Origin: Akkermansia muciniphila
Lineage (GTDB): Bacteria > Verrucomicrobiota > Verrucomicrobiia > Limisphaerales > BJHT01
Assembly (NCBI GenBank): GCA_945861535.1
Contig: CAMAUZ010000083.1
Span: forward strand, 1 to 33,625
Reading direction: 5' to 3'
DNA: 33,625 nt
Shown: positions 3,543-26,681 of the stretch, piece by piece
How the letters are laid out: every line of letters starts with the position of its first letter
Numbering within the stretch: position 1 is the first letter of the stretch
Made by a program: the position numbers and the translations under genes
Notes under the pieces: model-generated
The model's database searches: none
What the model saw: the letters and a program-made list of their open reading frames with translations, nothing else
Told to the model about the DNA's origin: nothing

Positions 3543-3750
3543 CAGTCCCTGCGGTCCCGGAGGGACACTTGAGAATAGCCCAGCACTTCAGTGCTGGGTC
3601 AGTGATGGGGAGGAACCAAGTCCCGACAGGGACGGCAGACCCTCGTGCCGATGGCTCGGTCGTCCCTGCGGGACTTGCGGATTGAATCAGCGCGTACCCA
3701 GCACTCAAGTGCTGGGCTATTCTCGGTCGTCCCGCCGGGACGGCCAAAAC
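3543..3750. repeat. About 200-bp imperfect inverted repeat with CCCAGCAC..GTGCTGGG hairpins
   Basis: The left arm (about 3553-3599) contains GAATAGCCCAGCACTTCAGT and the right arm (about 3696-3742) contains CAAGTGCTGGGCTATTCTC. Each arm holds its own hairpin, CCCAGCACT..AGTGCTGGG. Outer GTCCCGG..GGGAC motifs also pair across the element, so the whole segment can fold as a cruciform. Confidence 0.7.
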
Positions 3751-10623: not shown

Positions 10624-13600
10624 TCACCGCTCCAACACCGCCTCCGCCCAGTCTGCCGCATCAAACCGGTTCCCATCCCCCGCATCTGTCACCACCAGGC
10701 GCAATCGCTTCACGCCGGCGACGTCCACCGCCGCGTCGCGCACTGGATCAAATCCCGACACCAGCGCGGAATTCCACAGTTTCTTGCCGTCGCCCCAGAC
10801 CTCGAAGACCACGGAGCCGCGGCCGTCGGTGGCGGCGTCGATGCCGTATTTGGTGCGGAATTTCTTGAATTGGCCGTTCACGGAAAACTCGACCAGGCTG
10901 TTCGCGAACACGCCCAGGCCGTTCTCGAAACCCGTCTGCCCGATGCGCAGCGGGGAGCCGATCATGTTCCGGGCGATGCGCGGACGGCCGACGTTCTGGT
11001 TCGCGTGCAGCGGCCCCAGCGCGCTCAGCGGGAAGGTGCCGCCGCGATATTCCAGCACCGTCCAGCCCGCGCTGGTCGCGCGCGTCGCGTATTGCACCAC
11101 GATTTCGGCCTCGGATTTGCCGGCCAGCGTTTCCGCGGCGATCACAAACTCCGCCTCGCGCAAACCCTCGTTCAAACCCGCGCCCGCGTGGCGCAAATCC
11201 CATCGGCCCGCCGTCGCGCCATTCACGCGCACCTCGGCCTCGAAGCCCGTCTGGTCGAGCTGGAAGCGCTTCCGCAGCACCACGCCCGCGCCCGCCGGCA
11301 CGCGCACGCGGAAGGTCTCGCTGCCGCCGCTCGCAAACTCCACGCCCGCCCACGACCCCACTTCGCCGCCCACGTTCGCGCCGGTCAGCACTGCGGGTTT
11401 GCCGCCCGTCTGCTGATACCCGGCCACCGCGCCCGTCGCCGGGGTGAAGTTCGCCAGCACCCGTTGCGGCCACTCGCCCTCGGCCCCGTCGCGCACCTGC
11501 AAGCGCTGCAACGCCTCCGCCGCCGCTTCCTTGCCCGCCGCAATCGTCAGCAACACCGGCACCGTCCCCACCGGATACCAGCCGCTCTCCGCGTCCACGA
11601 CGCTGCCGAAAGCATCCTCCGCCGCCTCGACCTTCAATCCCGTCCCCGCGAGCGACAGCCCGCCCAGCGGCCCGTTGCGCCACGTCACCAGCAGTTGCTT
11701 CCCGCCCTCTTTGCGGCGGAACAGCGCGTACCGCGTGCGCCCCGGCAGCACGTCCGGCACCTCGCCGTCGGCCAGCGGTTCGAGCTGGTCGAGCAGCGGA
11801 CGCAGCCGCGCCAGCGCCCACCACGCGGGCTTGAGCTGATACGTCAGCGGCTTCTCGATCAGCGGCGGAATGTTCAGCGAACGCCGGTGCAACAGGCCCG
11901 TGCCCGGCCGCTCGTAATCGCCGTTGTGCATCGAGAGCGCGGGCCGCACGCCGAGGCTGCGCAACAGCAAATCCGTCCGCACCAGATACCCCGCCTGCTC
12001 AAACACATTCAGCCCGTCGCGCGTCGTCTCGACCGCCCAGTCCAGCTCGGTGAAATACAGCACCTTCTCGCGTTTGCCCGGCGGATTGATGAGGTCGGAC
12101 AGCTCGCGCGCAAACCGCGTCACCTCGAAATCCTCCGGCGACATCCGCCCCGCATCGAGCCGCACGTTCACGCCGCCGAACGTGTCGAGCGCACCGAGCT
12201 TCTTCAGTTCCGCGAGATACGGCAGCGCCGTCGCGCGGTTCATGCCCCCGATGATCAGCGGCGTCTGTGGGCAATACGCGCGCCGCCACTTGTCCGTCAC
12301 CTGCAAAAATTTCACGAACTTCTCCGGCGGCATCGCCAGCGTGCTCGTGCCGTCCGGATTGTCCCACAGCACGAAGCCGCCCACGTCGCGGCCCATCGCG
12401 CGCATCACCTCGCGCACGTAATTTTCCCAATCCTCGATCCGCTGCGGGATCAGGAAAATGTCCACGCCCTGCCCGACGTGACGGAACAGCCGCACAAAAT
12501 TCCCCGCCTTCACCCGCTCGTAGCCGATGCCCGCCGCCCAGTACGAACTGAACCCGAGCAGCATCCACGGCTCGGTGCCGTTCTCGCGCACCCGGGCAGC
12601 GCGCGTGCGCATCGTGTCCGGCTGGAAATTGCCCGGATGATATTCCACCCAGTCCCAGTCCTCATCGAGCGGCGTGATGGGATCGCGCAGCGGCCCGCGC
12701 AGCTTCCATTCGTCCTGCAACGCCGCGACGACATTCGTCCCGAGCAACGGCTCGAGCGCGCCGACGATCACGTCCTCCTCCACGCTGCCGACCGTCTTGC
12801 CGTTCTCTTGCAATTCGAGCCGCACGAGAAACGCCCCCGCGTTCAGCGCCGGTTCCAGCGCCACTTCCACCGGCTTGCCCGGCGCGAGCGCCACCTCGCC
12901 CGCGGGCGGCGCGGCCACCCGGCGACCGCGCCAGTCGAACACGCCGCCCGTCACGCGCACCGTGCGCGGCGTGGTGTCGGCGTTGCCCACGCGCACGCGC
13001 ATCCGTCCGCCCGGCGCGAGCACATTCGCCTCGCCCGCCTGCACCAGCTCGAACGACAGCCGCGCCGCCGGCTCCGCGTGCGTCCGCACCTCGACATCGT
13101 CCACGTACAAAACCCCGCTCGTGACATTCGTCCCTACCAGCCGCGTGTCCGTCGCGAGATGCAATCCCAGCGGATAACTCGGCGTGAATGACAAAATCGG
13201 CAGCGCCTGGTCCCACGTCGGCGGCACCACCGGAAGCTGGAACTGCAACTGCCGCCAGCCCGTCCAGTCCACGCGCACCGCGTTTTGCAACTCGCCCGCC
13301 ACGCGCGGCAGGAACAGGTCGAACTGCAACGCGTTCAACCCGTGCTTCACCCCGCGCTTGTCGCCAATCAGCGGATAAAACAACACGCCCGAGTTGTCGC
13401 CGAAGAGCCACAGCGACAGCTCCACCGCCTGTCCGGGCAGCGGCGGATCGACGGAGACCAATGAAATCGGCTTCTTCTCCTTGTCCCACCGCAGCGCCAG
13501 AGAGCGCTTGCCCGAGTGCGCCTGTTCGGTCGTCGTCTGCGCGTCCGTCTCGCCCTCGCCCGGCGCGTCCTTGATGCCCTGCGCCTTCAGCCCGAGAAAG

Positions 13601-15762
13601 CCGCGCGGCGTTTCGAAATCAGCGACCCGCGCAACCGTGTCCGGCTTGGACAACGCGATCGCCCGCGTCGCCGACACCGACGCGTCCTGCGTGTCCACCA
13701 CCGTCACCTTCAACCGCAACGGCCCCGCCGCCGCCGCGAGCTGCGCCGCCACCGCCGCGAGGTCAATCTTCGTCTCGTGCGCGCGCCCGAAGCCCAGCTC
13801 GAACTTGAACTGCCCGGTCGCCACCACGCGGTTCTGCCGGTCCTGCACCTCCCAGTTCGCCTCGACCTTGCGCGACCCCAGCCGCGCGCCGTTGTGAACC
13901 GTCAGCCAAGCGTTGCGATTCGCCGCCCACGCCTGCCCCGGGTCCTCGTAGCTCACATGCGCCGTCAGCGTCTCCGCGTTCGCCACCTGCGTCTCCGCAT
14001 ACACCGGCCCGAGCAGCACCGTGCCCGGCTCGACGGATTGCCCCGCGTAAATGCGAAACGCCGTCAGCTCCAGCGGCATGTCCAGGTCGGGACTTGATCC
14101 TTTGAGCGTGTTGCTCCCGATGCCGTTGCCCGGCAGCTCAACGCGGAAATAACGCCAGTCGGTGAAGTCCAACGTGCAGACCTTGCGCTCGCCGTGGTCG
14201 ATGCGCTTCCAGCCGCCGGTGTAGAAATCCGCGAGGTCCGTGTAATCCAGAAACAGCGCGTACAAATCCGACTTGCTCCCGTCGCCCTTCACCCACACGC
14301 CGACGGCGTACGCGTTGCCCGCGAGAAAGCGGTCAATCCCGCGATACACCACGCCCTCGCCGCCGCTGTACTCGAGCTTCATCGCCAGGCGTCCCGGCGG
14401 CTGCGCCAGCGGATTCGCCGCGGCCGCGGCCTTGAGTTCATCCGCGCCCACCTCGACGCGGCTGAGGCGCGTGCTGGTCTGCGTGAGCGGATTGCCGCGC
14501 TGCGATTCGCCGTGCGCCCAATAAATCCAGTTGCGGTGATCGCGCGCGATGGTCGCGCCGTTGGCCGACATCGTGCCGCTGGTGAACCAGTGCGAATACA
14601 GCATCCCCATGTCCGCGTGCAGCACGGTCGCGTTGCCCATCACCAGCGTCTGCTCGATCCGCTCGTTCAACGTCGGCAGGTCGGGACTCACGATGTCGCC
14701 CGTGATTTTGAACGGCGGCAGGAACGCGGCGAGCTGATCGGGCTTCAACGCCAGCAGCACTTCCTTCGACTCGCGCGCGCCGAGTTGCAGCGTGAAATCG
14801 CGGTCGGCCACGAGGTTTTGGTTGCGGTCGGTCATCGCGATACGCAACTGCAGCTTCACCGGTTGATTCGCAAAATTGCGCCCGTCGAGAAACAGCGACA
14901 CCGCCGGGTCAAAATTCCGCACCAGCGGACCGAACACACCGCCGCTCACCGCAAACGCCGGCGCATTCGCCGTCGGATACAGCCGCAGGTCATCGAGAAA
15001 AATCGTCCCCTGCAACGGCATCCCCTCGCCCGCCTTGCCCTGCTTGCCCGAAATACTGATGCGCTCCAGCGCCGCCACTCGCCCCTCGGGAATGCCCGTC
15101 GCGTCGAGCGTGAGTTCGCGCCACTCCGTGAAATCCAGCGGCACCCCGGGCAGCGTGAGCGACGACACCCGCACCGCCCGTTTGCCTTTCGCGTCCGACT
15201 CCATCTCCGCGTGCCGCAGCACGAACTGGAGCGTGTTCGTCGAGCCGTCGCCCTTGACCCACACCTTCACGCGCCCCGCCGACAGCGTGTACGGCTGCTC
15301 GCCCAGCGGCAGGTCCGCGCTGCGCCGCTGCGCATCCAGCGTGTACTCGAGCCGCGCCGCCGCGAGACCGACCTTCACCTCATTCGTCTGCAACATAGTG
15401 CGGATGCTCGCGCTCGACGGCAGCGCCGTGGAAAAATTATGCCCCACCACATGCGGCTGCGCGCCGAGCGAAACCACGCACGCGAGCAAGGCGAACAAGA
15501 GCGCGGGAAATAGTCTGGGGAGCGCACGCGGCCCGCGTGCCGGTTTGGGCGGCCCGCCCAAACCATCGTTCCCCAGTCTGCCTGCTTCCCCGAAAAAGCA
15601 AGAGCGGGGAACGAAGTTTTCGGCGGGCCGCCGAAAACGGCACGCCAGCGGCGTGCGCTCCCCGGGGAGCGTGCTGCGCTCGTTGCCGCACGGCGTGGAG
15701 GTTCCGGCAGATCGCGGGACTTCGGAGTTCGGATTCATGATCACGGGCGTGGAAATTTGCAT
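10624..15762 (-). CDS. Very large secreted glycosidase-like protein with C-terminal NPCBM domain
   Basis: A 1712-residue protein, last gene of the five-gene operon, starting 24 nt after the PQQ protein. The first 82 residues are odd: residues 34-82 are encoded by a 147-bp palindromic repeat, and only then comes a signal-peptide core (LFPALLFALLACVVSLGAQ, about 83-101). Several beta-sandwich segments with 'DFTEWREL'-type motifs follow (about 120-900) and look like carbohydrate-binding modules. Residues about 1010-1320 resemble a TIM-barrel glycosidase (GGFVLWDNPDG, IIGGMNRAT, VLYFTELDWAVET), but the usual clan-A 'NEP' acid is not seen. Residues about 1570-1712 form an NPCBM (novel putative carbohydrate-binding) domain, ending DAGDGNRFDAADWAEAV. 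A role in binding or processing glycans outside the cytoplasm is likely. The ATG at 15738 is an alternative start. Confidence 0.7.
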   Translation of the reverse strand: MQISTPVIMNPNSEVPRSAGTSTPCGNERSTLPGERTPLACRFRRPAENFVPRSCFFGEAGRLGNDGLGGPPKPARGPRALPRLFPALLFALLACVVSLGAQPHVVGHNFSTALPSSASIRTMLQTNEVKVGLAAARLEYTLDAQRRSADLPLGEQPYTLSAGRVKVWVKGDGSTNTLQFVLRHAEMESDAKGKRAVRVSSLTLPGVPLDFTEWRELTLDATGIPEGRVAALERISISGKQGKAGEGMPLQGTIFLDDLRLYPTANAPAFAVSGGVFGPLVRNFDPAVSLFLDGRNFANQPVKLQLRIAMTDRNQNLVADRDFTLQLGARESKEVLLALKPDQLAAFLPPFKITGDIVSPDLPTLNERIEQTLVMGNATVLHADMGMLYSHWFTSGTMSANGATIARDHRNWIYWAHGESQRGNPLTQTSTRLSRVEVGADELKAAAAANPLAQPPGRLAMKLEYSGGEGVVYRGIDRFLAGNAYAVGVWVKGDGSKSDLYALFLDYTDLADFYTGGWKRIDHGERKVCTLDFTDWRYFRVELPGNGIGSNTLKGSSPDLDMPLELTAFRIYAGQSVEPGTVLLGPVYAETQVANAETLTAHVSYEDPGQAWAANRNAWLTVHNGARLGSRKVEANWEVQDRQNRVVATGQFKFELGFGRAHETKIDLAAVAAQLAAAAGPLRLKVTVVDTQDASVSATRAIALSKPDTVARVADFETPRGFLGLKAQGIKDAPGEGETDAQTTTEQAHSGKRSLALRWDKEKKPISLVSVDPPLPGQAVELSLWLFGDNSGVLFYPLIGDKRGVKHGLNALQFDLFLPRVAGELQNAVRVDWTGWRQLQFQLPVVPPTWDQALPILSFTPSYPLGLHLATDTRLVGTNVTSGVLYVDDVEVRTHAEPAARLSFELVQAGEANVLAPGGRMRVRVGNADTTPRTVRVTGGVFDWRGRRVAAPPAGEVALAPGKPVEVALEPALNAGAFLVRLELQENGKTVGSVEEDVIVGALEPLLGTNVVAALQDEWKLRGPLRDPITPLDEDWDWVEYHPGNFQPDTMRTRAARVRENGTEPWMLLGFSSYWAAGIGYERVKAGNFVRLFRHVGQGVDIFLIPQRIEDWENYVREVMRAMGRDVGGFVLWDNPDGTSTLAMPPEKFVKFLQVTDKWRRAYCPQTPLIIGGMNRATALPYLAELKKLGALDTFGGVNVRLDAGRMSPEDFEVTRFARELSDLINPPGKREKVLYFTELDWAVETTRDGLNVFEQAGYLVRTDLLLRSLGVRPALSMHNGDYERPGTGLLHRRSLNIPPLIEKPLTYQLKPAWWALARLRPLLDQLEPLADGEVPDVLPGRTRYALFRRKEGGKQLLVTWRNGPLGGLSLAGTGLKVEAAEDAFGSVVDAESGWYPVGTVPVLLTIAAGKEAAAEALQRLQVRDGAEGEWPQRVLANFTPATGAVAGYQQTGGKPAVLTGANVGGEVGSWAGVEFASGGSETFRVRVPAGAGVVLRKRFQLDQTGFEAEVRVNGATAGRWDLRHAGAGLNEGLREAEFVIAAETLAGKSEAEIVVQYATRATSAGWTVLEYRGGTFPLSALGPLHANQNVGRPRIARNMIGSPLRIGQTGFENGLGVFANSLVEFSVNGQFKKFRTKYGIDAATDGRGSVVFEVWGDGKKLWNSALVSGFDPVRDAAVDVAGVKRLRLVVTDAGDGNRFDAADWAEAVLER
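15517..15663. repeat. 147-bp palindromic element inside the 5' end of the NPCBM-protein gene
   Basis: Ends GGGGAGCGCACGC (15517) and GCGTGCGCTCCCC (to 15663) are inverted repeats. Internal arms GGTTTGGGCGGCCCGCCCAA and TTTTCGGCGGGCCGCCGAAAA are two more hairpins. The length is exactly 49 codons and it is open in the gene frame. Confidence 0.75.
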
Positions 15763-15786
15763 GGGCGTGTTCTCAAAACCACCGCG

Positions 15787-18700
15787 CTACTTCTTCTTCG
15801 GCGCCGCCGCCGGCTTCGGCGTGGTCCCGGCCTTCGCGGGCGGACGCGGCGCGGGCTTCGAGGCCGGCCCCGAGCCTTTCACCTGCCACACGCTCGCCGC
15901 GCCATCGAACAGCGCATACGTCCGCGGCGGGCTTTTGAAATTCACCGACGCCTGGCCCGTGACCAGCAGCAGCTTCCCCTGATACGCCAGGACCGACAGC
16001 ACCTTGCCCGTCCGCGACGGCGCGACGAAGCGCTCGTCGGCCTTGCCATCCGCGCGCACCAACACCTGCAAACCCTCCGTTGTCGGCACCAGCACCTGCG
16101 TCTCCGTCGCGATCGGTTGCCCCGAGACAAACGCGTCCAGCCGTCGCTGCCACTGCACCTTTCCATCCGTGCCGAACAACGCCGCGTCGCCCTGTTCGCT
16201 CAGGAAAAACACACCATCCGGCGTCACCAACGGACACGCCGTGACATACCCGCCGACCGGTTTCTTCCAAATTTCCTTTCCGTCCGCCGCCGCAAAACAA
16301 TGCGCCACGCCCTGCTCGTCGCCCACGTACACGCGCCCGCCCGCGACCGCCACGCTCCCGCGCGTGTGCGGCGCGACCGGCGCTTTCCACACGAGCAGGC
16401 CCGACGCCGCATCCACCGCGTAACAGAAGCCGTCGCCCGACGCGAAGATCACGCGCCCGCCCGCGAGCGCCGCGCTGCCGCGCACATCGCCGCCCGTGGC
16501 GAACTCCCACAGCAACGTCCCCGAATGCACGTCCAGCTTGTACAGCCGCCCGTCATCCGAACCGAAATAAACGTCGTCCCCGTCCGGCACCGGCGACGAA
16601 TACACGCGTCCGCCCGTCGGGAAACCCCACAGATACGTGCCGTTGTCCGCCACCGCGTGCAGCCGGTTGTCCGCCGAACCCACCAGCAACCGCCCGAGAT
16701 GCCGTGCGGGCGTGGTCGTGGGCGTGATGGTTTGCAGCGGCCAGGTCGGGCCGTTGCCGAGCCGCCGCGCGGCCGCCGGCGCGTCGGGCGCGGGCAGTTG
16801 CAGCGAACGAATCTGCCCCGCGGGATCGGCCAGCGTCAGCACGCCGTTCAGCACCGTCGCGCCCGCGTGAAACGCCGGGTCCAGCCGCTGGCTGCCGAAC
16901 ACTTCGTAATCACCCGTGAAATCCGCCGGCAGCTTCGCCGGCACATGCGTCGGGCCGCCCATGAACATTGGCCACGCCTCCGCATCGGCGAGCTGCGTCC
17001 CGCCCTCCTGCTCCGGCCCGCCCAGCGGACCATAGACCTCGATCTCCGTGATGCTTTCGTGATGCGCGCGATACAGCGGCAGAATCTTCATCGAGTCCGT
17101 GAACACCGGCTTGGCGAAATGCACCACGACGAAGCGCTTCTTGTTGCCCCGCACGAGCGCGACCGACTCGGGCAGTTTCGTCTTCGTGTTGTTCGCGAGA
17201 ATGCTGAGCGTCGTGTACACATCGTCCGGCCGCGCGTTGTTCAGATAAATCACCAGATGCGACACGTACGCAGGCTTCGGCATCACCACGCTGAACCCCA
17301 TCACGTCCGGTTGGTACGACCACACCGCGCCGACGTCATCGAGCCGGCCGTTGTGGAGAAACGCCTGCTCCTGGGTGTAGATCGTCGCCACGTTCGACGG
17401 CCCCTGCTTGTAGCCGGCGACGTGGTTGCGGTTCATCAGGCGCGAGCGCAGCGACTGCGGGATGCGGTCGTACTGCACGCGGATGTCGCGCACGAAGGTC
17501 GGGTCCACGGCCGCCAGCTCCGGGTCCGCCAGCAGGTTCGCCGACGGGAACCGCACCGCGCGCAGGCTCACCGCATCCAGCACCACGCGCCCGCCCACGG
17601 CCTCGAAACCCACTTCGAGCGACTTCGTCCCCGCGTAACTTTTCAGCGCCAGCCGCCCGAACAACCACTGCCCCGGACGCCCCTTGAACTCCGACGCCGT
17701 CAGCGCCGACTTCGCGCCGTCCTTCAATTCCACGCCCGCCGTCAGCGTCGCGCCCGCGCCCTCGAGCCGGTAGCGAAACTCCAGCAGATACGTCGCCGAC
17801 GGCACCACGCGCCGCCCGACCGCCTGCGTCACCAACTGCCCGTTCAACGCCAGCGCCCGCTTCCCCGCGAAGCCCGGCGTGACGAATTCCAGCTTCCCCG
17901 TCACGGCTTTCCACGCGTCGTCGGACTCGAAGCCGCCGTTCGTCAACTGCTCGATCCCGTGCCGCAGAATCTGGTCGTACTCGCCCGGCTGATCATCGTT
18001 CACCGGGAAAAAGTCCGGCGTGGAATCCAAGTCGCGCTGGAGCGCGGTCTGCACATACCCGGCGTAATTCGTTCCCGGCAATTCGTGCAACTTCGCGAGC
18101 CGCGTCTCCCACAGCAGCTTCCCGGTCGCGTCCACGCGCGCCACGCGGCCCGACTTGTCGCCGGCCGTCAGCAAGTCGCCCGTCGCGTCCATGACCGCAC
18201 CGAACGGCAGCTTCTGCGTCCACAGCAATTTCCCATCCGCCAGCGTGTGGCAGGAGATGTTTCCGTCGCGGTCGCAGCGATACAGGCGTTTCGCATCCGC
18301 GCTCACCACGTCGAGATCGGGCAGCACCGTCTCCGGCGCGGCGATGCGCCACAGCGGCTTCCCTTTCGCGTCGCGCCGCACGGCCTCGGTGCGGTCCAGC
18401 ACCAGCGTGCCGCCATCGGCCAGCGTGCGTCCGACCAAATCCTGCGGCGAGCCGAGGCTCGCGTCCTCTTTCAGCGGAATCGCCAGCCCCTTCGTGTGCG
18501 CAAACGGCACGGGCGAACTCGCCGGCCAGCTCACGCTCCAGCCGCGCGGCGCGGCCGAGCTGCCCGGATCATCCTTGCCCTCGGCGAGCACCTTGCCCGT
18601 CTTCGCTTCAATGATGAGCGGTCGGAACGCCCACAGCGTGTCCACCGTGCCCGGCACCTTGCCCGGCGTGGAACCCACGATCAGAAATTCCCCGTGAACA

Positions 18701-21700
18701 ATCTTCGTTCCGTCGGGACTGAGCTGCGCATTCGCCAGCACCACGCTGCGGCTGAACTCCGCCGCGAGACTTTGCTCGGCCTCGACCGGATACGTCGCGA
18801 TGGCCTCCGCGCGGTCGCGCAGCCACATGCGCTTGCCCTCGAAATCCACCGCCAGAATCCCCGTGCGCCCGAGCAGCAACACCTGCCGCAGCCTGGTGTT
18901 GATCACGATGGGCACCTCGGTATCGACCGGCCCTTCCGTGTAATGAAAATCCGCCCAGCCCGTCGTCGCGAACTTTCGCAGCACCTTCCCGTCCTTCGCA
19001 TCGAGAATGAAACACAGCCACCCGCGCCCCGTCGCCGCCACGATCTTTTTCCCGTCGTCGATGAAGCCCGCGAAATACACGTTGTGCTCGGGCAAGAACG
19101 TCTTCCACAGCAGCGTCCCGTCGGCGGCGAGGCAGAACAGATTGTCGCCGTAACCCGCCGTGCCCACGACCGTGCGGCCCGTCGCCGCATCGACATCCAC
19201 CATCCGCACCCAGTCCGGCCACGCGATCGCGTCGGCCATCGCTGACGGCGCTTTCGCCTTCGCCTCGCCCGCGGCCAGCGCGGCCTTCGGATCCGGCGCG
19301 GACCGCGTCACGACGGGCGCGACGATCTCGGTGCCCTTGCCCGCCTCGGGCGCAAGCACGGCATCGACGCCGCGCGTCAGCCCCGCCTCGTCCTGGCTGA
19401 GGATGCTCAGCGTGTCGTGATAGTTGGAGAAGGCCCGCACCGTCACGTTCACCAGCGCCCGCCCGCGGCCGGGGAAATTGGCCGTCAATGGCTCCGGCAA
19501 CACGTCGCGCCGGATCAACGCCTCGATCAACCGGCTCTCATACCGCCGCCCCAGCAACACCATCGGCGCTTCGACAAACAGCCCCGGCTCGACCACGTCC
19601 CCGCGCCACAGCCGCGTCCCGTCGATCTCCGCGCGCGTCATGTTCCATTCGCCCGGCAGCTTGATCACCTCATCCGCGTTCACGATGCGCGCCTCGCGGC
19701 CCTTCGCGGCCAGCGCCTTCTGCAACCGCTCCGCCTGCGGCCGCACCCACGCCTGGTCCGCGTCCGTCACGATCAGCACCGGCGTTTTGCCCGCGAGAAA
19801 TTTCGCCACGCGCGCCGGCTCGTTCACCCACACCGACCGCGCGTCCAGCGTGCCCGTCGGGACCGCGCCCGCACTGATTTCGATTCCCGCCTCCGCCACG
19901 CAGCCGCTCATCAACTCGCGCACCCGCAGCGTCCAGCGGCCCGCCGCCGCATTGGCGCCCACGCGATACACGCCACGAAACTCCGGCGCGGCCGCGCGCC
20001 ACACCTGCTGCACCGTCTTGCCCGCCGCGTCGCGCAGCTCGATCTCCAGCGGAAATGCCGCGTCAATCGCCTGCCCGTCCGCGCCCGCCACGTTGACCGC
20101 GTAATTCAAATCTTCGCCCGCCGTCACCCGCGCCGTCGCACCGAGCTTCACGCCCGCAATGGCCGTCGGCAGAAACGCCAGCAACTTCCCCGGCACCGCG
20201 CGCATGTCCGCCGTCAGCGTCATCCACTCGCCCTCGGTCTTCACGTCCGTGACCGGCTTCATCGCCAGCACGTCGTAGCAAACCGGCGGCCGCCGCGGGA
20301 ACCGCAACTGCGGCGCGTCCGGCGCCTGATGCAGCGCGCGGCCGAGACTGCTGAAACCGGGATCGGCGAAGTTCGGCAGGAACAGGTACTGCCCCTGCCC
20401 GCGCTTCTGCCAGTCGGGACCGACGAGCAAATTGTGCTGCGCGGCGGGGGGAATGCGCTTGGCCAAAAACTCGCGCACCGTCTTCGTGATTTCCTCCGAC
20501 TGGTCGAACACCTGCCGGAACTCGAAATCCAGCCCGCGCGGAAACGCCCCGCCCAGCTTGTCGTCGAACTCATCCAGCTCGGAATCCAGCCGCACCACGC
20601 CCTCGAGATCGAGCTTGCTCGAACGCTCGACGACGATGGTTTTGCCCGCCGAGATCAGCCGTTGCAGCGCCGCGCGCACCGTCGGCGCGATCTCCTGCTC
20701 GATGGTGAAACCGGGCGCGAAGATCACCTGGTATTCCAGCCCCTTCCCCGCGAGCAACTGGTGGTCGTAGAGAAAATCCGCCGGGAAACCCGCGCGCATG
20801 CAGCCCACCCAGATGCCCTCGCACGCGTGCGACACCGTCGTCTGTTTGCGCTGCGAGAGATGATCCGCCTGCCGCGAGTAATACACCGCCACCTGCTGGT
20901 AGCCGCGTTCGAGCGCGAGCAGAAAGTCGCCGTAGGGCCGCGTTAGTTGCCTCGTCACGTTGCGCGCCGTGTCCGCGGAATCGGTGTGATGCCGGTGCGC
21001 CGCATCGTGTCCGGACTCGAAGAACGAGATGCCTTCGACCTTTTGCGACAGCGCGAAAAACGTGTTCCGCAACTGGCTTTCCCCGTGCCGCCCCGAGACG
21101 TGGTGCGCGTCGATTTGCGTCCACACCGGCTGGCCGTCGCGCACGCGCAGGATGTCCGCCATAATCGCGCCATACGCGGGCCGAGGGCCGTAGCCGCCGT
21201 CCTTGTACATCACGCACGTCGCGATATCGAGGCCGCCCTGGACATCGAGCACCGTGCCGTTCCCCGCGATGTTGCCGCCGTTCCCGCCCCATTGCCGCTG
21301 AAACACAAAGTTCGCCGAGTGCGGCATCAGGTCCTTCGCCACCGCGCCGATGCGCCGCGAGAAGTCCGCCCATTCCTGGTCTTGAAATTCATTCCACGTC
21401 AGGAAGGTCGCGAGGTCCTCGTAATTCCGCTGGCCCGCCGGACGCCCCATGAAGCGGTCGATCGCCCGCGTCGCCCGCGCGCCCGTGAGGCCGCGGTCCT
21501 TGTGCTTCTCGCGGAAGGCCATCTCCTCCGCGGTGTCGATCGCCACGATCACCGGCGGCGGCAGGCCGATGATGCTCGTCCAGTAAAACTCGTCGTAGAG
21601 CGCCGCGCCGAGATACGCCGGGTGATGCCGCAGCGAGGCAATTTCCAGGCTCGCGTACCGCTCGCTGGCATCGATGAACAGCGGCAGGCGCGGCACCTGC

Positions 21701-24699
21701 GTGTCGTTGTAGGTGAAGAGGTCCTCGTAGAACCGGAGATTGTGCCGCAGCGCCGCCGTCATGAACCGGTCGCGCCCGCTCGCCTGATAATGGCTTTCCC
21801 ACGGCCCGAGTTCGGGCCGGTCGCGCACGAGCTGTTCGAGATCGGCGTGGTGGCGGTTCACGCGGTCCTGGTCGTAGCTCATGCCGCTGAAACCGTTGTA
21901 TCCGAGCGACTGAATCTCGCGCGCCAGTTCCTCCGCGCCGCGGCCCGTGCGCAGCGAACTCGAATACGCCGCGCCGAGCGGGCTGTACTTGCCGTTGGAG
22001 AGATTCACGAAATGCGTCTCCGGCTCGGAATCGACGAGATCAAACGCCAGCGGGGCCGCCGCGTAATCTCCGACCTTCGCCTCGAAGCGATACCGCCCCG
22101 GCGCGAGCGACCGGCTCAGCGCGTCGGGAATGCGCACGACGAACGTGTCGCGCTCGATCACCGCCGCCGCCAGCTTGTGCCGCAACAGCGGGAATTTCTT
22201 TCCCGCCGCATCCACCAAATCCACGTCCACCGCCGCGCCCGTCGGCGGCGACTGCCCCTTCACGAGCACCGCGACCGCGACCCAGAACGACTCGCCGCGC
22301 CAGAACGCGTCGCGTCCGCGCAGCGTGAACAAGCCCACGCCCACGGGCTTTTTCGTCGCCACGGAAATCCGCACCGTCGTGCGCAATGACAACGCCTCGG
22401 GATCGTCCGGCGCCATGCCCAGCTCAAGCTGATACACGCCATCGACCAGCGTCGCGGGCAGCGGAATTTCCAGTTCACCGGGAACGCCGTTCGCCACGGC
22501 CTTCGTCGGCAGCGCGGTCCACGCCGTTTCCTTTTCGCCGCGCAGACGCGCGAAGGGCTTCCAGTTCTCCGCCGTGTTCACGCCCTCGACCGCCTCGACC
22601 TTCGCGGACGCGTTGGTGAGCGCCGTCTCGGCGAGCGCCAGTTTCGCCTGCACCGTGGGGATTTGCGGCAGCAACTCCTCCAGCGCCTTCATCGCGTCGG
22701 TGACTTTCGCCCGCGCGTCGTCGATGTCCTTTTGCAGATCGGTGGTCACGACGTCCGGGTCTTTCACCTTCGCCGCGTCGAGCGCCTTCAGTTTCGCACC
22801 GACCGAGTTCGTCGCGGATTTCCACGCGTTCGTGCCCTGCGTGAGCTTGCTGTTCAACGCGCCCAGCGCGGTCTGCGCCGCCTTGAACGCATTCGTCGCC
22901 GCCCGTGCCCCGCGGTCCGCTTCGACAATCGGCCACGGATCAATCACGCGCACCGACGCGCGCACGCCCTGGCCCGGCTCCCAGTGGCGGCCCGTCAACT
23001 CGGCGACCAGCCCGCGTTGGGCGCCCTTCACGCGGTCGCCCGTCGCGACGCGAAACGACTTGATGGGAAACTTCGACAGATCGCCGTCCACGAGAATCGC
23101 CGGGCCGACCTCGGCGACCTTGAATTCATACGGCTGCTTGCGCGGATACCACGTCGTGAGCTTGCGCGCGCCGGCCTCGTGTCCGGCCCAGGTGTATTGT
23201 TCGACCCCGGGCACGATGGCCTTCGAGCCTGGCTCGCCCTCGACCGGAAAGCCGTACACCGGCACCTCGATCACGCTCTCCTTCACGTTCAAACCCGCGA
23301 TGGCCGCGCCGCCGCCCGCGCCCGCCTGCACGCCCGCCGCGCCGAGATGAAAAGTCTGCCCGAGCGGATGCAGCACGTAGCCCTGCGTGTCCGTGTTCGC
23401 CGGCAGCCAGATTGTGAGCGGCGCGAATTTTTCATAAACCGGCAGCAGCTCGCGCGATTTGTCCGCGCCCTTGCCCATGCCCTTCGCCGCGTCGTCCGCG
23501 TCGCGCAGCGTGAGGTTCGGCAGCGCCGCCACGCGCATCGACATCGGCAGATCGCTCTCGTCGGGATTCGCGCGATACGCGCGGACGCTGACCGGATACG
23601 CCTTGATCCGCACCACGCCGCCCTCGACGAGCAGCTCGGGATCCTTGGTCGAAAGCGCGCCGTTCGTGGCGACATTGAAAACATGCTTCCCCGGCCACAG
23701 CACATGCTCGCCCGGCTTGAGCACGGCGCGCGCGATGGGCAGGCGGTCGATGTATTTCCCCTCGTGAAAGCGCTCGAAGAACGGCTTGTCATCCAGCAGG
23801 ACATTGCGCGCCCAGCACACGACCTCCACGCCGACCTGCCGCATCTCGATGCCCGTCGGCGTCGAGACCGGATTGATGATCGGCTTGCGGCGCTCGAGCT
23901 TGTCCACCGTCGTGTCCGGCTGATTGAACGGCACGAGCCGCAGCTCGATCTCGAAACTGCCCTTCGGCACCTCGGCGGAAATGGCGGAGAACGGGGAGAG
24001 CAGTGTGAGCAATGCAAGAGCCAGCGCGGTGCCGAGCCGGGCGCATCCGCGCACGGCTCCCGTGTAGCGCAGACTTCCAAGTCTGCTGTATCGCGGGTTT
24101 CCAAACCCGCAGACGCTCCGACCACCCGCAGCGCCGCGGCTTGTCTCACGCGTCCGAAAGTCCGTGGCCGCCGCCGATTTAGAAATCGGCGACACAGCAG
24201 GTTTGGAAACCTGCGCTACAGGGGCGGTGCGCGAATCCGCGCCACCAAGCTGGGAGCTTCCGCGCTCGGCTCCGGTGTAGCGCAGACTTCCAAGTCTGCT
24301 GTATCGCGGGTTTCCAAACCCGCGGACGGTCCGACCACCCGCAGCGCCCCTGCTTGTCTCACGCGTCCGAAAATCCGCAGCCCCCGCCGATTTGGAAATT
24401 GGCGACACAGCAGGTTTGGAAACCTGCGCTACAGGGGCGGTGCGCGAATCCGCGCCACCAAGCTGGGAGCTTCCGCGCTCGGCTCCGCTGTAGCGCAGAC
24501 TTCCAAGTCTGCTGTATCGCGGGTTTCCAAACCCGCGGACCGTCCGACCACCCGCAGCGCCGCGGCCTGTCTCACGCGTCCGGAAATCCGCAGCCCCCGC
24601 CGATTTGGAAATCGGCGACACAGCAGGTTTGGAAACCTGCGCTACAACGGCCGCGCACGGCGTGCGCCGCAAACCCGGATTGCCCTCTTTGATCTTCAT
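15787..24699 (-). CDS. Giant secreted glycosidase-like protein with coiled coil and PQQ propellers
   Basis: A 2970-residue protein. Start choice: the ATG at 24699 has GGGGA 7 nt upstream, the same layout as before the neighbouring DUF4159 gene; a GTG at 24054 directly before the signal peptide is the alternative. Residues about 19-213 are encoded by three tandem palindromic repeats. The signal peptide core is LGTALALALLTLLSPFSAIS (about 223-242). Then come a beta-rich region, a helical Ala-rich coiled coil (about 600-703), a glycosidase-like domain (about 890-1470, with GYNGFSGMSYDQD, YLGAALYDEFYW and FLTWNEFQDQEW), a first set of PQQ-like repeats (about 1830-2230; DGTLLWKT, DGKLLWTQ), a galactose-binding-like sandwich, a second PQQ-like beta-propeller (about 2640-2950; SGTLLWEFATGG) and a Pro/Lys/Ala tail. 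It is probably an exported glycan-active or scaffold protein. The exact reaction is unknown. Confidence 0.7.
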   Translation of the reverse strand: MKIKEGNPGLRRTPCAAVVAQVSKPAVSPISKSAGAADFRTRETGRGAAGGRTVRGFGNPRYSRLGSLRYSGAERGSSQLGGADSRTAPVAQVSKPAVSPISKSAGAADFRTRETSRGAAGGRTVRGFGNPRYSRLGSLRYTGAERGSSQLGGADSRTAPVAQVSKPAVSPISKSAAATDFRTRETSRGAAGGRSVCGFGNPRYSRLGSLRYTGAVRGCARLGTALALALLTLLSPFSAISAEVPKGSFEIELRLVPFNQPDTTVDKLERRKPIINPVSTPTGIEMRQVGVEVVCWARNVLLDDKPFFERFHEGKYIDRLPIARAVLKPGEHVLWPGKHVFNVATNGALSTKDPELLVEGGVVRIKAYPVSVRAYRANPDESDLPMSMRVAALPNLTLRDADDAAKGMGKGADKSRELLPVYEKFAPLTIWLPANTDTQGYVLHPLGQTFHLGAAGVQAGAGGGAAIAGLNVKESVIEVPVYGFPVEGEPGSKAIVPGVEQYTWAGHEAGARKLTTWYPRKQPYEFKVAEVGPAILVDGDLSKFPIKSFRVATGDRVKGAQRGLVAELTGRHWEPGQGVRASVRVIDPWPIVEADRGARAATNAFKAAQTALGALNSKLTQGTNAWKSATNSVGAKLKALDAAKVKDPDVVTTDLQKDIDDARAKVTDAMKALEELLPQIPTVQAKLALAETALTNASAKVEAVEGVNTAENWKPFARLRGEKETAWTALPTKAVANGVPGELEIPLPATLVDGVYQLELGMAPDDPEALSLRTTVRISVATKKPVGVGLFTLRGRDAFWRGESFWVAVAVLVKGQSPPTGAAVDVDLVDAAGKKFPLLRHKLAAAVIERDTFVVRIPDALSRSLAPGRYRFEAKVGDYAAAPLAFDLVDSEPETHFVNLSNGKYSPLGAAYSSSLRTGRGAEELAREIQSLGYNGFSGMSYDQDRVNRHHADLEQLVRDRPELGPWESHYQASGRDRFMTAALRHNLRFYEDLFTYNDTQVPRLPLFIDASERYASLEIASLRHHPAYLGAALYDEFYWTSIIGLPPPVIVAIDTAEEMAFREKHKDRGLTGARATRAIDRFMGRPAGQRNYEDLATFLTWNEFQDQEWADFSRRIGAVAKDLMPHSANFVFQRQWGGNGGNIAGNGTVLDVQGGLDIATCVMYKDGGYGPRPAYGAIMADILRVRDGQPVWTQIDAHHVSGRHGESQLRNTFFALSQKVEGISFFESGHDAAHRHHTDSADTARNVTRQLTRPYGDFLLALERGYQQVAVYYSRQADHLSQRKQTTVSHACEGIWVGCMRAGFPADFLYDHQLLAGKGLEYQVIFAPGFTIEQEIAPTVRAALQRLISAGKTIVVERSSKLDLEGVVRLDSELDEFDDKLGGAFPRGLDFEFRQVFDQSEEITKTVREFLAKRIPPAAQHNLLVGPDWQKRGQGQYLFLPNFADPGFSSLGRALHQAPDAPQLRFPRRPPVCYDVLAMKPVTDVKTEGEWMTLTADMRAVPGKLLAFLPTAIAGVKLGATARVTAGEDLNYAVNVAGADGQAIDAAFPLEIELRDAAGKTVQQVWRAAAPEFRGVYRVGANAAAGRWTLRVRELMSGCVAEAGIEISAGAVPTGTLDARSVWVNEPARVAKFLAGKTPVLIVTDADQAWVRPQAERLQKALAAKGREARIVNADEVIKLPGEWNMTRAEIDGTRLWRGDVVEPGLFVEAPMVLLGRRYESRLIEALIRRDVLPEPLTANFPGRGRALVNVTVRAFSNYHDTLSILSQDEAGLTRGVDAVLAPEAGKGTEIVAPVVTRSAPDPKAALAAGEAKAKAPSAMADAIAWPDWVRMVDVDAATGRTVVGTAGYGDNLFCLAADGTLLWKTFLPEHNVYFAGFIDDGKKIVAATGRGWLCFILDAKDGKVLRKFATTGWADFHYTEGPVDTEVPIVINTRLRQVLLLGRTGILAVDFEGKRMWLRDRAEAIATYPVEAEQSLAAEFSRSVVLANAQLSPDGTKIVHGEFLIVGSTPGKVPGTVDTLWAFRPLIIEAKTGKVLAEGKDDPGSSAAPRGWSVSWPASSPVPFAHTKGLAIPLKEDASLGSPQDLVGRTLADGGTLVLDRTEAVRRDAKGKPLWRIAAPETVLPDLDVVSADAKRLYRCDRDGNISCHTLADGKLLWTQKLPFGAVMDATGDLLTAGDKSGRVARVDATGKLLWETRLAKLHELPGTNYAGYVQTALQRDLDSTPDFFPVNDDQPGEYDQILRHGIEQLTNGGFESDDAWKAVTGKLEFVTPGFAGKRALALNGQLVTQAVGRRVVPSATYLLEFRYRLEGAGATLTAGVELKDGAKSALTASEFKGRPGQWLFGRLALKSYAGTKSLEVGFEAVGGRVVLDAVSLRAVRFPSANLLADPELAAVDPTFVRDIRVQYDRIPQSLRSRLMNRNHVAGYKQGPSNVATIYTQEQAFLHNGRLDDVGAVWSYQPDVMGFSVVMPKPAYVSHLVIYLNNARPDDVYTTLSILANNTKTKLPESVALVRGNKKRFVVVHFAKPVFTDSMKILPLYRAHHESITEIEVYGPLGGPEQEGGTQLADAEAWPMFMGGPTHVPAKLPADFTGDYEVFGSQRLDPAFHAGATVLNGVLTLADPAGQIRSLQLPAPDAPAAARRLGNGPTWPLQTITPTTTPARHLGRLLVGSADNRLHAVADNGTYLWGFPTGGRVYSSPVPDGDDVYFGSDDGRLYKLDVHSGTLLWEFATGGDVRGSAALAGGRVIFASGDGFCYAVDAASGLLVWKAPVAPHTRGSVAVAGGRVYVGDEQGVAHCFAAADGKEIWKKPVGGYVTACPLVTPDGVFFLSEQGDAALFGTDGKVQWQRRLDAFVSGQPIATETQVLVPTTEGLQVLVRADGKADERFVAPSRTGKVLSVLAYQGKLLLVTGQASVNFKSPPRTYALFDGAASVWQVKGSGPASKPAPRPPAKAGTTPKPAAAPKKK
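24063..24646. repeat. Three tandem 213-bp repeats, each with a 158-bp palindromic element
   Basis: Palindromic elements with ends TGTAGCGCAG and CTGCGCTACA lie at 24063-24220, 24276-24433 and 24489-24646. Starts are exactly 213 bp apart (71 codons), so the array is a tandem repeat that includes a 55-bp spacer. All three are open in the frame of the giant gene and encode segments with VAQVSKPAVSPISKSA and NPRYSRLGSLRY. An 11-bp direct repeat, CCGCGCACGGC, flanks the array (24047-24057 and 24651-24661). The family also occurs at 4009-4130. Confidence 0.85.
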
Positions 24700-24706
24700 G
24701 AAAATT

Positions 24707-24711
24707 TCCCC
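24707..24711 (-). promoter_or_regulatory. Ribosome binding site supporting the distal start of the giant gene
   Basis: GGGGA on the minus strand lies 7 nt before the ATG at 24699. The same arrangement precedes the ATG at 25671. This favours initiation upstream of the repeat array rather than at the GTG next to the signal peptide. Confidence 0.5.
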
Positions 24712-24714
24712 GGT

Positions 24715-25671
24715 TCAATGCGTGTAAACAAACAACACCCAGTTGGCCATCCACTGGTACATGGTCTCGCGCTGGCGGTTGTCGCCGCCGTGCCCGATGC
24801 CTTCACCGATCGGATTCGAGGCGCTGGGCGGCGTCGAGATTTCCCAGCCGCAGCCGTCGTCGTTCGGGCTGAAGAAAATCGCCGGCCGGTTATCCAGCGG
24901 GAAATACAGCCACGCGCGGTTCTCGAACTCCGCCGCGCCCGGCCACGGCGTCGGATAGATCATCTTGAAACAGTCCTTCACCAGCACGTCGTCCTGCGCC
25001 AGCACGCGCGGCTCCGCGCCCACGATCATCTTCGCCACTTCGGGCCGCACCGACTCGGCGAACGGGCTGCCGCGATTGTAGCAATCATCCAGAAACAAGG
25101 TGCCGCCGCGCTTGAGAAACAGCGTCAGGTTCGCGTTCTCCTTCTCATTGAAACCCCAGCGGTAATGCGACGTGAGATACAGCACCGTCTCCTGAAAGAT
25201 GTCGTCCTTCCCCGTGTTCAGCCCCTCGTTTTCGATATGCACCGGCAGGTCCGTGCGCTTGCCGATCTGGTAGAGCATGTAGGGAACGGCCGTCGGGTCC
25301 GTGTTCCAATCCACGCTCGGCATCGCCGGCTGAATCTTGCGGATGCGAATCTTGTTCCGCCGGTCCGCCTCGCCCTGCTCTGACCGTTTCACCGCCTCCG
25401 TCGCCGAAATCTCCGTGCGGTTCATCTGCCGCGCCCGCTCGGCCCACGACTGCGCGTGCGAGGCGGGCGTGAGCAACAACAGCGCGACAAAAAACGCGAG
25501 CAGGCAGAACGCCGGCAGCGTGGAGCAATTCGAAAATTGGTAGGGCGCGTCTGTCCTCAGCGCGCCGCTTCGGTGTACGCACGGTCCGCGGCGCGCTGAG
25601 GACAGACGCGCCCTACCATCCCGCTCACGAAAACTCCCCGCCAAATCCAGATTCCCACCAACAGTCTTCAT
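24715..25671 (-). CDS. DUF4159-domain secreted protein (paralog A)
   Basis: A 318-residue protein with start ATG 25671 (GGGA 7 nt upstream), 14 nt after the stop of its paralog. Residues 19-45 come from a 79-bp palindromic element. The signal-peptide core follows (AFCLLAFFVALLLLTPASHA), with probable cleavage after A73. From about residue 105 the DUF4159 domain runs to the end: VDWNTDPTAVPYMLYQIGK, then VLYLTSHYRWGF, GGTLFLDDCYNRGSPF (about 188-203) and ENRAWLYFPLDN. DUF4159 is predicted to have a class I glutamine amidotransferase-like fold; no enzymatic role is established. The C-terminal 250 residues differ from the paralog at only a few places (LNTGKDD for LNVAKDD; WMANWVLFVYTH for WMTNWVLFAYTH), which marks a recent tandem duplication. 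Confidence 0.82.
   Translation of the reverse strand: MKTVGGNLDLAGSFRERDGRARLSSARRGPCVHRSGALRTDAPYQFSNCSTLPAFCLLAFFVALLLLTPASHAQSWAERARQMNRTEISATEAVKRSEQGEADRRNKIRIRKIQPAMPSVDWNTDPTAVPYMLYQIGKRTDLPVHIENEGLNTGKDDIFQETVLYLTSHYRWGFNEKENANLTLFLKRGGTLFLDDCYNRGSPFAESVRPEVAKMIVGAEPRVLAQDDVLVKDCFKMIYPTPWPGAAEFENRAWLYFPLDNRPAIFFSPNDDGCGWEISTPPSASNPIGEGIGHGGDNRQRETMYQWMANWVLFVYTH
25539..25617. repeat. 79-bp palindromic element in DUF4159 gene A
   Basis: Two perfect 29-bp inverted arms begin GGTAGGGCGCGTCTGTCCTC and enclose a 21-nt loop that starts CTTCGGTGTACGC on the plus strand. It lies between the start codon and signal-peptide core of the gene and is read through in frame. Confidence 0.85.
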
Positions 25672-25678
25672 AAAATTT

Positions 25679-25682
25679 TCCC
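25679..25682 (-). promoter_or_regulatory. Ribosome binding site for DUF4159 gene A
   Basis: GGGA on the minus strand lies 7 nt before the ATG at 25671. It places the start codon upstream of the 79-bp repeat. Confidence 0.45.
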
Positions 25683-25685
25683 GGT

Positions 25686-26681
25686 TCAATGCGTGTAAGC
25701 GAACAACACCCAGTTGGTCATCCACTGGTACATCGTTTCGCGCTGGCGGTTGTCGCCGCCGTGGCCGATGCCTTCGCCGATCGGGTTCGACGCACTCGGC
25801 GGCGTCGAGATTTCCCAGCCGCAGCCGTCATCATTCGGGCTGAAGAAAATCGCGGGCCGGTTATCCAGCGGGAAATAGAGCCACGCGCGATTCTCGAACT
25901 CCGCGGCCCCCGGCCATGGCGTGGGATAGATCATCTTAAAACAGTCCTTCACCAGCACGTCGTCCTGCGCCAGCACCCGCGGCTCCGCGCCCACGATCAT
26001 CTTCGCCACCTCGGGCCGCACCGACTCGGCAAACGGGCTGCCGCGATTGTAGCAATCATCCAGAAACAACGTGCCGCCGCGCTTCAGAAACAGCGTCAGA
26101 TTCGCGTTCTCCTTCTCATTGAATCCCCAGCGGTAGTGCGACGTGAGGTAGAGCACCGTCTCCTGAAAGATGTCGTCCTTCGCGACGTTCAAGCCCTCGT
26201 TCTCGATATGCACCGGCAGGTCCGTGCGCTTGCCGATTTGGTAGAGCATGTAGGGAACGGCCGTCGGGTCCGTGTTCCAGTCCACGCTCGGCATCGCCGG
26301 CTGAATCTTGCGGATGCGGATTTTGTTCCGCCGGTCCGCCTCGCCCTGCTCCGAGCGCTTCACCGCCTCCGTCGCCGAGATTTCCGTCCGGTTCATCTGC
26401 CGCGCCCGCTCCGCCCACGACTGCGCGTGCGCCGCCAGCGGCAGCAGCACGGTGCAAAATGCGAGCAGGCAAAACCCCAGCAGCGTGGACCCTCTGGGAG
26501 CTTGGTAGGGCGCGTCTGTCCCCAGCGCGCCGCGGGCCGTGCGGACGCCGAACCGGCGCGCTGAGGACAGACGCGCCCTACCAGTCCGCTTTGGAAAACT
26601 CCCGCCCCCCGCCGCGCCAGCCTGTGTCTCCCCACCAACCAAGTCCGGAGGCTCCTGGCCGACAAAGAATCCACATGTCAT
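25686..26681 (-). CDS. DUF4159-domain secreted protein (paralog B)
   Basis: A 331-residue protein if started at the ATG at 26681; a more distal start at 26729 is open, and a TTG near the VGG stretch is possible. Residues 34-60 are encoded by a 79-bp palindromic element. The signal core follows (LLGFCLLAFCTVLLPLAAHA), with cleavage likely before QSWAERARQ. The DUF4159 domain (VDWNTDPTAVPYMLYQIGK, GGTLFLDDCYNRGSPF) is nearly identical to that of paralog A, while the N-terminal 80 residues differ more. The sequence VGG...GSF just before the element is recognisable in both paralogs, so the duplication covers the 5' end as well. It stands about 100 nt after the nagA-like gene and 14 nt before paralog A. 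Confidence 0.8.
   Translation of the reverse strand: MTCGFFVGQEPPDLVGGETQAGAAGGGSFPKRTGRARLSSARRFGVRTARGALGTDAPYQAPRGSTLLGFCLLAFCTVLLPLAAHAQSWAERARQMNRTEISATEAVKRSEQGEADRRNKIRIRKIQPAMPSVDWNTDPTAVPYMLYQIGKRTDLPVHIENEGLNVAKDDIFQETVLYLTSHYRWGFNEKENANLTLFLKRGGTLFLDDCYNRGSPFAESVRPEVAKMIVGAEPRVLAQDDVLVKDCFKMIYPTPWPGAAEFENRAWLYFPLDNRPAIFFSPNDDGCGWEISTPPSASNPIGEGIGHGGDNRQRETMYQWMTNWVLFAYTH
26504..26582. repeat. 79-bp palindromic element in DUF4159 gene B (loop inverted)
   Basis: The 29-bp arms match those at 25539-25617 with one mismatch. The 21-nt loop is CGGGCCGTGCGGACGCCGAA(C) on the plus strand. Its reverse complement, GTTCGGCGTCCGCACGGCCC(G), matches the other loop at 17 of 21 positions, whereas the direct orientation does not match. 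Confidence 0.85.

What the first reader, a model, noticed from the sequence alone, without database searches (positions are those of the whole stretch)
15517..26582. Palindromic repeats read in frame between start codon and signal peptide in four consecutive secreted-protein genes
Four adjacent minus-strand genes (NPCBM protein, giant PQQ protein, DUF4159 A and B) each carry a palindromic element after the start codon and before the signal-peptide hydrophobic core. Three unrelated element families are involved: 147 bp at 15517, a 3x213-bp array at 24063, and 79 bp at 25539 and 26504. All are open in the gene frame. For two genes a GGGA/GGGGA ribosome binding site sits 7 nt before the upstream ATG, which argues that the inserts are translated as long n-region extensions. 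Rickettsial palindromic elements are the known case of repeats domesticated in frame. A targeting to the signal-peptide 5' end, where extra residues are removed on export, is not something I know to be described. The caution is that true starts could lie after the repeats (GTG or TTG).
Basis: partly seen in the sequence, partly recalled or inferred. Interest (0 to 1): 0.8.

Follow-up and report, generated by a model that had tools for sequence, protein, structure and literature searches.

The report
Mobile palindromes translated as signal-peptide leaders
In this lake Verrucomicrobiota lineage, small mobile palindromic DNA repeats that normally sit between genes have repeatedly landed just after the start codon of exported-protein genes and appear to be translated as a throw-away leader in front of the export signal, with the reading frame kept while the repeats are swapped between species.

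Summary
All four window genes carry palindromic elements in frame between an upstream ATG and the signal-peptide core: 147 bp, 3x213 bp and two of 81 bp (not 79). The two DUF4159 genes are tandem paralogs, so there are about three insertion histories, not four. The elements are high-copy REP/BIME-like repeats; two of the three families bear the GTAG tag. In 2.03 Mb of this genome, copies of these three families near gene starts sit in an open frame for 18 of 25 signal-peptide genes but 9 of 38 other genes (Fisher 2e-4). A same-genus genome has the same operon with different inserts in the same places, still open. Over 11 signal-peptide genes with a conserved upstream ATG, length changes of 3 to 468 nt always kept frame. 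Best explanation: tolerance, not targeting: the n-region is cleaved off, so it accepts repeats like intergenic DNA provided the frame stays open. REPs inside ORFs and one repeat inside a predicted signal peptide were published; a systematic signal-peptide niche with frame-preserving turnover was not found. Not proven by proteomics.

The parts
10624..15762 (-). NPCBM-domain exported protein gene, start ATG 15762, signal-peptide core about 15466-15501
   Evidence: Pfam PF08305 E 3.4e-37; start-context score 2.7, 97th percentile of internal start-like codons
15517..15663 (-). Z element, 147-bp palindrome read in frame (GERTPLACRFRRPAENFVP...KPARGPRALP) between ATG and h-region
   Evidence: inverted arms 15517-15588/15592-15663; 7 of 21 Z copies in 2.03 Mb lie in open frame before an h-region; at least 2 tandem in-frame copies in G001
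15787..24699 (-). giant PQQ/beta-propeller exported protein gene, start ATG 24699, signal-peptide core about 24001-24036; alternative GTG 24054 after the array
   Evidence: Pfam PF13360; ATG context 3.4 (98th percentile) against GTG 24054 at -7.6 (39th percentile); ATG conserved in G001, +159 nt, open
24025..24663 (-). Y array, 3 x 213 bp GTAG-tagged hairpin clusters read in frame as 213 codons before the signal-peptide core
   Evidence: G001 has one Y unit plus another palindromic family at the same place, in frame
24715..25671 (-). DUF4159 gene A, start ATG 25671 (18 nt after the preceding stop), signal-peptide core about 25471-25506
   Evidence: Pfam PF13709 E 3.5e-24; no ATG/GTG/TTG between element and h-region; ATG context 5.7, 99th percentile; conserved in G001, -207 nt, open
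25538..25618 (-). X element in gene A, 81 bp, two inverted GTAG-tagged half-sites, read GRARLSSARR...GALRTDAPYQ
25686..26681 (-). DUF4159 gene B, tandem paralog of A, probable start ATG 26681, signal-peptide core about 26448-26483
   Evidence: Pfam PF13709; ATG context 1.3, 94th percentile; conserved in G001, +87 nt, open
26503..26583 (-). X element in gene B, inverted relative to the copy in A; G001 keeps only the right half after an 87-nt in-frame deletion

Best explanation
The elements are non-autonomous REP/BIME-type palindromic repeats that transpose or spread through this genome, mostly into noncoding DNA. When one lands between the start codon and the hydrophobic core of a signal peptide, in an orientation and frame without stops, the gene survives. 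Ribosomes start at the old upstream ATG, translate the element as an extra n-region of 27 to over 200 residues, the internal h-region still engages the export machinery, and signal peptidase removes the whole extension, so the mature protein is unchanged. The n-region therefore behaves like intergenic DNA with one constraint, an open frame in phase; elements there are gained, tandemly multiplied, deleted and replaced between species while phase is kept. Shown here: positions, frames, enrichment, frame-preserving turnover, start contexts. Inferred: translation from the upstream ATG, export and cleavage of the long precursor, and transposition (by RAYT transposases, shown only as neighbours of two of the inserted families).
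For: Genes A and B have no ATG/GTG/TTG between element and h-region, yet their mature proteins are conserved. Sister genome G001 (BJHT01 record) has the same operon with different in-frame inserts. In 11 of 11 signal-peptide genes with a conserved, in-frame, open upstream ATG and no separate normal start before the h-region, length differences of 3 to 468 nt keep phase and open frame; intergenic length changes do not show this. Filled/empty pairs: C4 gene with normal MKLKTFSLAVFLCVFCASLFAAE in G001 against MKLKT plus 468 nt of repeats, open in frame, in G000; C3 gene with a 219-nt insert containing Z. Upstream ATGs of the four window genes score 94th-99th percentile by a model of 122 unambiguous starts. 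X/Y/Z copies near 5' ends: signal-peptide genes 18 open, 7 closed; others 9 open, 29 closed; Fisher 2e-4. Long n-regions defined without reference to repeats are repeat-enriched (8/32 against 30/338, p 0.01). Palindromic elements: 16 in pre-signal-peptide translated positions with ordinary n-regions totalling 9.2 kb, 18 in 1675 kb of core interiors, 204 in 355 kb of noncoding DNA. A distant homolog has an ordinary short signal peptide (L162).
Against: No expression, ribosome or N-terminal data. GTG 24054 (giant) and TTG 15561 (NPCBM) could be starts; non-canonical starts such as CTG are not excluded for A. Some other cases have poor upstream start contexts (C4 ATG -4.6, C22 ATG -10.9), and in G001 the C6 gene has a stop inside the element and a GTG right after it, so not every case is translated through. 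Gene calls and signal-peptide calls are home-made (hexamer model; hydrophobic window plus AxA), not SignalP. Both genomes are draft or metagenome assemblies. The 11/11 count excludes three genes judged to have a nearer ATG and one gene (C26) whose alignment was inconsistent.
Confidence: 0.8

Rival explanations
1. The elements are untranslated 5' leaders. Translation starts downstream at GTG, TTG or a non-canonical codon; the upstream open frame is accidental because GC-rich palindromes have few stops.
For: GTG 24054 and TTG 15561 exist; Z is stop-free in six frames; Di Nocera and colleagues warn that many N-terminal intragenic REPs are misannotated (PMC3733652); several genome-wide cases clearly have a normal ATG after the element.
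Against: No start codon after the element in A and B; poor start contexts for the alternatives; 11/11 phase conservation; closed frames are common for the same families before non-secreted genes but not before signal-peptide genes; upstream ATGs follow the preceding stop by only 18-24 nt in A, giant and NPCBM.
Confidence: 0.13
2. The placement is targeted or functional: elements insert preferentially at signal-peptide 5' ends, or the translated hairpins and Arg-rich leaders regulate translation or export and are kept for that.
For: 25 of 63 X/Y/Z copies near gene starts are at signal-peptide genes, which are 28% of genes; Z has 7 of 21 copies there and none closed; hairpins are extremely stable.
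Against: Inserts are replaced by unrelated families between sister species; the same element is used in different frames (Z in NPCBM against C22), so no peptide is conserved; the excess in number is modest compared with the excess in open frames; many copies lie elsewhere.
Confidence: 0.08
3. Chance or assembly artefact.
For: MAG-type assemblies with many repeats; single elements have a fair chance of being open.
Against: Independent assembly G001 reproduces the arrangement; single-copy flanks align; statistics.
Confidence: 0.02

Closest known systems
GTAG-type REP elements and BIMEs, with REPs inside ORFs of Opitutus terrae and others (Di Nocera 2013, PMC3733652)
   Same: Short GC-rich palindromes, GTAG tag on X and Y, inverted dimers, high copy number, mostly intergenic, reported in Verrucomicrobia, some inside ORFs and at NH2 ends.
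   Different: That paper considered many NH2-terminal cases to be misannotated and described no link to signal peptides. Here comparative evidence supports translation and shows a concentration before signal-peptide cores.
Rickettsial palindromic elements (RPE)
   Same: Palindromic repeats inserted in frame in many unrelated genes and translated; N-terminally decorated proteins are reported as expressed in vivo (cited in PMC3733652).
   Different: As described there, RPEs are spread through mature proteins; here the in-frame inserts concentrate in a region expected to be cleaved off, and unrelated families replace each other.
Enterobacterial RU-2 element forming part of the predicted signal peptide of YPO1552 (Delihas 2007, PMC2759123)
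   Same: A MITE-like repeat translated at the N-terminus of an exported protein.
   Different: Single case in which the repeat contributes signal sequence itself; here repeats lengthen the n-region ahead of a pre-existing h-region, in many genes and families.
Extended signal peptides (autotransporter long signal sequences, PMC2805444; Planctomycete extended signal peptide)
   Same: Long n-region before a Sec-type h-region is compatible with export.
   Different: Those are conserved domains; these extensions are repeat-derived and turn over between sister species.

Membership tests
GTAG REP/BIME | palindromic core with GTAG at one end | tested here: met
   X begins TGGTAGGGCGCG, Y TTGTAGCGCAGG, each as inverted pairs; Z begins GGGGAGCGC and lacks GTAG, so Z is not a GTAG member
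GTAG REP/BIME | many copies, mainly intergenic | tested here: met
   40/36/21 copies in 2.03 Mb; palindromic regions 204 noncoding against 43 in or before coding
GTAG REP/BIME | cognate RAYT transposase flanked by the same repeat | tested here: not met
   9 RAYT (PF01797) genes in G000; none flanked by X, Y or Z within 1.5 kb. Met for other families: GGAGCGCCGAGCATTGCTC and GGAGCGCGGCTGTG flank RAYTs L260 and L262, and those families occur in the in-frame inserts of the C15:10559 and C4:6.8k genes
Rickettsial palindromic element | in-frame insertion into ORFs with translation | tested here: inconclusive
   in-frame and phase-conserved; translation itself not measured
Rickettsial palindromic element | sequence homology to RPE-1 to RPE-8 | not tested
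   no RPE sequences were compared; the claim is only 'works like'
Planctomycete extended signal peptide (Pfam) | match to the Pfam model | tested here: not met
   full-length proteins scanned against Pfam at E 1e-3: no N-terminal family
Sec signal peptide | hydrophobic core plus AxA-type site after the insert | tested here: met
   A ...CLLAFFVALLLLTPASHAQ, B ...LLGFCLLAFCTVLLPLAAHAQ, giant ...LALALLTLLSPFSAISA, NPCBM ...LLFALLACVVSLGAQ; home-made criterion, no SignalP
Sec signal peptide | export and cleavage of the long precursor | not testable with these tools
   needs N-terminal proteomics

The most novel reading that the evidence does not exclude
Signal-peptide n-regions are a genuine genomic niche for REP-type mobile elements: families with modal lengths divisible by three and few stops (X 81, Z 147) have been shaped to survive there, and the translated hairpin leader may also tune translation or export.
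Probability: 0.15. Interest if true: 0.85.

Novelty: new variant of a known kind. Interest (0 to 1): 0.64.

Why it matters
It addresses, by comparison of two sister genomes, an open point in the REP literature: whether REPs at the NH2 ends of ORFs are translated or misannotated. It shows a simple route by which mobile DNA enters proteins at little cost, and it means that start-site prediction, signal-peptide prediction and proteomics of such Verrucomicrobiota will miss or truncate exported proteins with leaders of 60 to 240 residues. The C3, C4 and C8 filled/empty pairs make the tolerance model directly testable.

Tried and rejected
Shine-Dalgarno scoring of starts: rejected, SD is not used here. 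L163, a distant homolog with a long n-region: its leader is not made of abundant repeats in its own genome, so not counted. Automatic phase test on all variable blocks was noisy and was replaced by the conserved-ATG test. X/Y/Z copies beside RAYT genes: none found. Literature searches for REP or palindromic inserts in signal peptides found only PMC2759123 and PMC3733652; open-access papers only.

Full report
Setting. The window is contig C83 of a 7.94-Mb draft genome. The closest named relative found is LBMAG_Verrucomicrobia_hypo.bin2 (BJHT01), which appears to be G001, the only same-genus genome listed in the relatives search (same contig number and coordinates). The four genes run on the minus strand as NPCBM, giant PQQ/beta-propeller, DUF4159 A and DUF4159 B, in that order of increasing coordinate.

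Observation. All are open in the gene frame. X folds into a 30-31-bp stem of about -76 kcal/mol; Z and Y are similarly stable, with z-scores of -6 to -13. A and B are tandem paralogs with the element at the homologous place but inverted, so probably one insertion followed by inversion, or reinsertion.

Are the inserts translated? In A and B there is no ATG, GTG or TTG between element and hydrophobic core. In the giant gene GTG 24054 follows the array, and in NPCBM TTG 15561 lies in the element. A position-weight model from 122 unambiguous starts gives the upstream ATGs scores of 5.7 (A), 3.4 (giant), 2.7 (NPCBM) and 1.3 (B). The median real start scores 5.9 and the median internal start-like codon -6.3; GTG 24054 scores -7.6 and TTG 15561 scores -13.0. 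The ATGs of A, giant and NPCBM also lie only 18-24 nt after the preceding stop.

Sister genome. In G001 the operon is the same and the mature proteins are mostly 95-99% identical (B is more diverged), but the leaders differ. A carries another palindromic family (GEPQRGSVLQPRVARNELPW...) in frame. The giant gene carries that family plus a single Y unit. B keeps half of X after an 87-nt in-frame deletion. NPCBM has at least two tandem Z copies, at a contig break. A more distant homolog, L162, starts with an ordinary short signal peptide, MKPHPAMNPAVCLLALAFVLLATSTNAQ.

Genome-wide test. 2.03 Mb were fetched. A home-made gene finder called 1337 genes, of which 375 have an N-terminal hydrophobic core with an AxA-like site. 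Repeats make up 12.7% of noncoding and 0.3% of coding-core bases. Among genes with a repeat within 250 nt upstream, 18 of 115 signal-peptide genes against 7 of 234 others have it in the open gene frame with no start codon in between (Fisher 7e-5). Using only the three window families, open:closed is 18:7 before signal-peptide cores and 9:29 before other genes (p 2e-4). With no start codon after the element the counts are 10 of 25 against 1 of 38 (p 2e-4; p 0.001 when A and B are counted once and NPCBM is dropped). Seven of 21 Z copies are in open frame before a hydrophobic core, none closed; one of the seven has a normal ATG after it. One of the non-signal-peptide exceptions is a prepilin (Y element before GFTLIELL), which also has a cleaved leader.

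Frame-preserving turnover. 82 G001 loci were aligned. For 11 signal-peptide genes with a conserved, in-frame, open upstream ATG and no separate normal start before the core, the ATG-to-core distance changes by -207, +87, +159, -69, -159, -3, +468, +219, -18, -243 and +126 nt, always a multiple of three and open in both genomes. In two of them (C28 and the C1 sulfatase) a TTG lies near the core, in the giant gene a GTG, and in C16 an ATG inside the core, so these four are weaker. Three genes that break the rule have a normal ATG just before the core, and one (C26) was inconsistently aligned and is left out. Upstream intergenic length changes show no such rule (for example 89, -221, -19, 14, 167, 206 nt). 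The clearest pairs are C4 (MKLKTFSLAVFLCVFCASLFAAE in G001; MKLKT followed by 468 nt of repeats in G000, open in frame, with 4 and 3 stops in the other frames) and C3 (219-nt insert containing Z). The C4 upstream ATG has a weak context score and a GTG near the core, so its start is less certain than its phase.

What the elements are. X and Y carry the GTAG tag and inverted-pair layout of REP/BIME elements described in Verrucomicrobia (PMC3733652). Y relatives occur in at least seven other families of the order. RAYT transposase genes are present. None is flanked by X, Y or Z, but two are flanked by GGAG-tagged palindromes that occur in the in-frame inserts of C15:10559 and C4. So membership is: X and Y REP-like without demonstrated RAYT; Z REP-like without GTAG.

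Mechanism. Insertion into the n-region is tolerated because everything before the cleavage site is discarded. In non-secreted genes the same elements upstream are mostly in closed frames. Density of palindromic elements is about 1.7 per kb of ordinary n-region, 0.57 per kb of noncoding DNA and 0.011 per kb of core interior (the first figure compares 16 elements with 9.2 kb of ordinary n-region and is rough). This supports tolerance under a frame rule rather than targeting. The same element is used in different frames in different genes (Z in NPCBM and C22), which argues against a peptide function.

Prior work. Intragenic REPs are known, with a warning that N-terminal ones may be misannotated (PMC3733652). 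One repeat within a predicted signal peptide is known (PMC2759123). Rickettsial elements in ORFs are known. No description of a signal-peptide niche was found in the open literature searched. Hence 'new variant of a known kind'.

Noticed in passing
window 3553-3598 (-) and 3697-3742 (+): Rfam family RF01687 (Acido-Lenti-1, listed as an sRNA) occurs here as an inverted pair and at least 135 times in this genome, often as -/+ pairs about 146 bp apart. In G001 C219 two copies flank a RAYT transposase gene on both sides (L248). It looks like a RAYT-mobilised REP element rather than an sRNA gene.
   Followed up: partly
L253, L255, L260, L262: RAYT genes in this genome are each flanked on both sides by a different palindromic family (CCCGGCTAATTTC, CCACCGGCTAATTTC, GGAGCGCCGAGCATTGCTC, GGAGCGCGGCTGTG), i.e. 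several RAYT/REP pairs coexist.
   Followed up: partly
window 25538-25618 against 26503-26583: The X copies of the tandem paralogs A and B are inverted relative to each other (94% identical reversed, 85% direct) at the homologous site: in-place inversion of a hairpin, or independent reinsertion.
   Followed up: partly
G000:C1:121407-121545 and G000:C8:90667 (minus-strand offsets of the fetched stretches): Prepilin-like genes also carry palindromic elements in frame in the leader before the cleavage site ([19 protein letters not shown]), suggesting that the tolerance extends to type IV pilin leaders.
   Followed up: no
G000 starts genome-wide: Shine-Dalgarno motifs are depleted rather than enriched before clear signal-peptide starts; the upstream region is AT-richer than the genome instead.
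   Followed up: partly
G000:C22, a large gene classed as non-secreted (about 2400 codons): Several palindromic elements (six hits listed for this contig and strand) appear to be read in frame inside the interior of one large protein, an exception to the rule that interiors are avoided.
   Followed up: no
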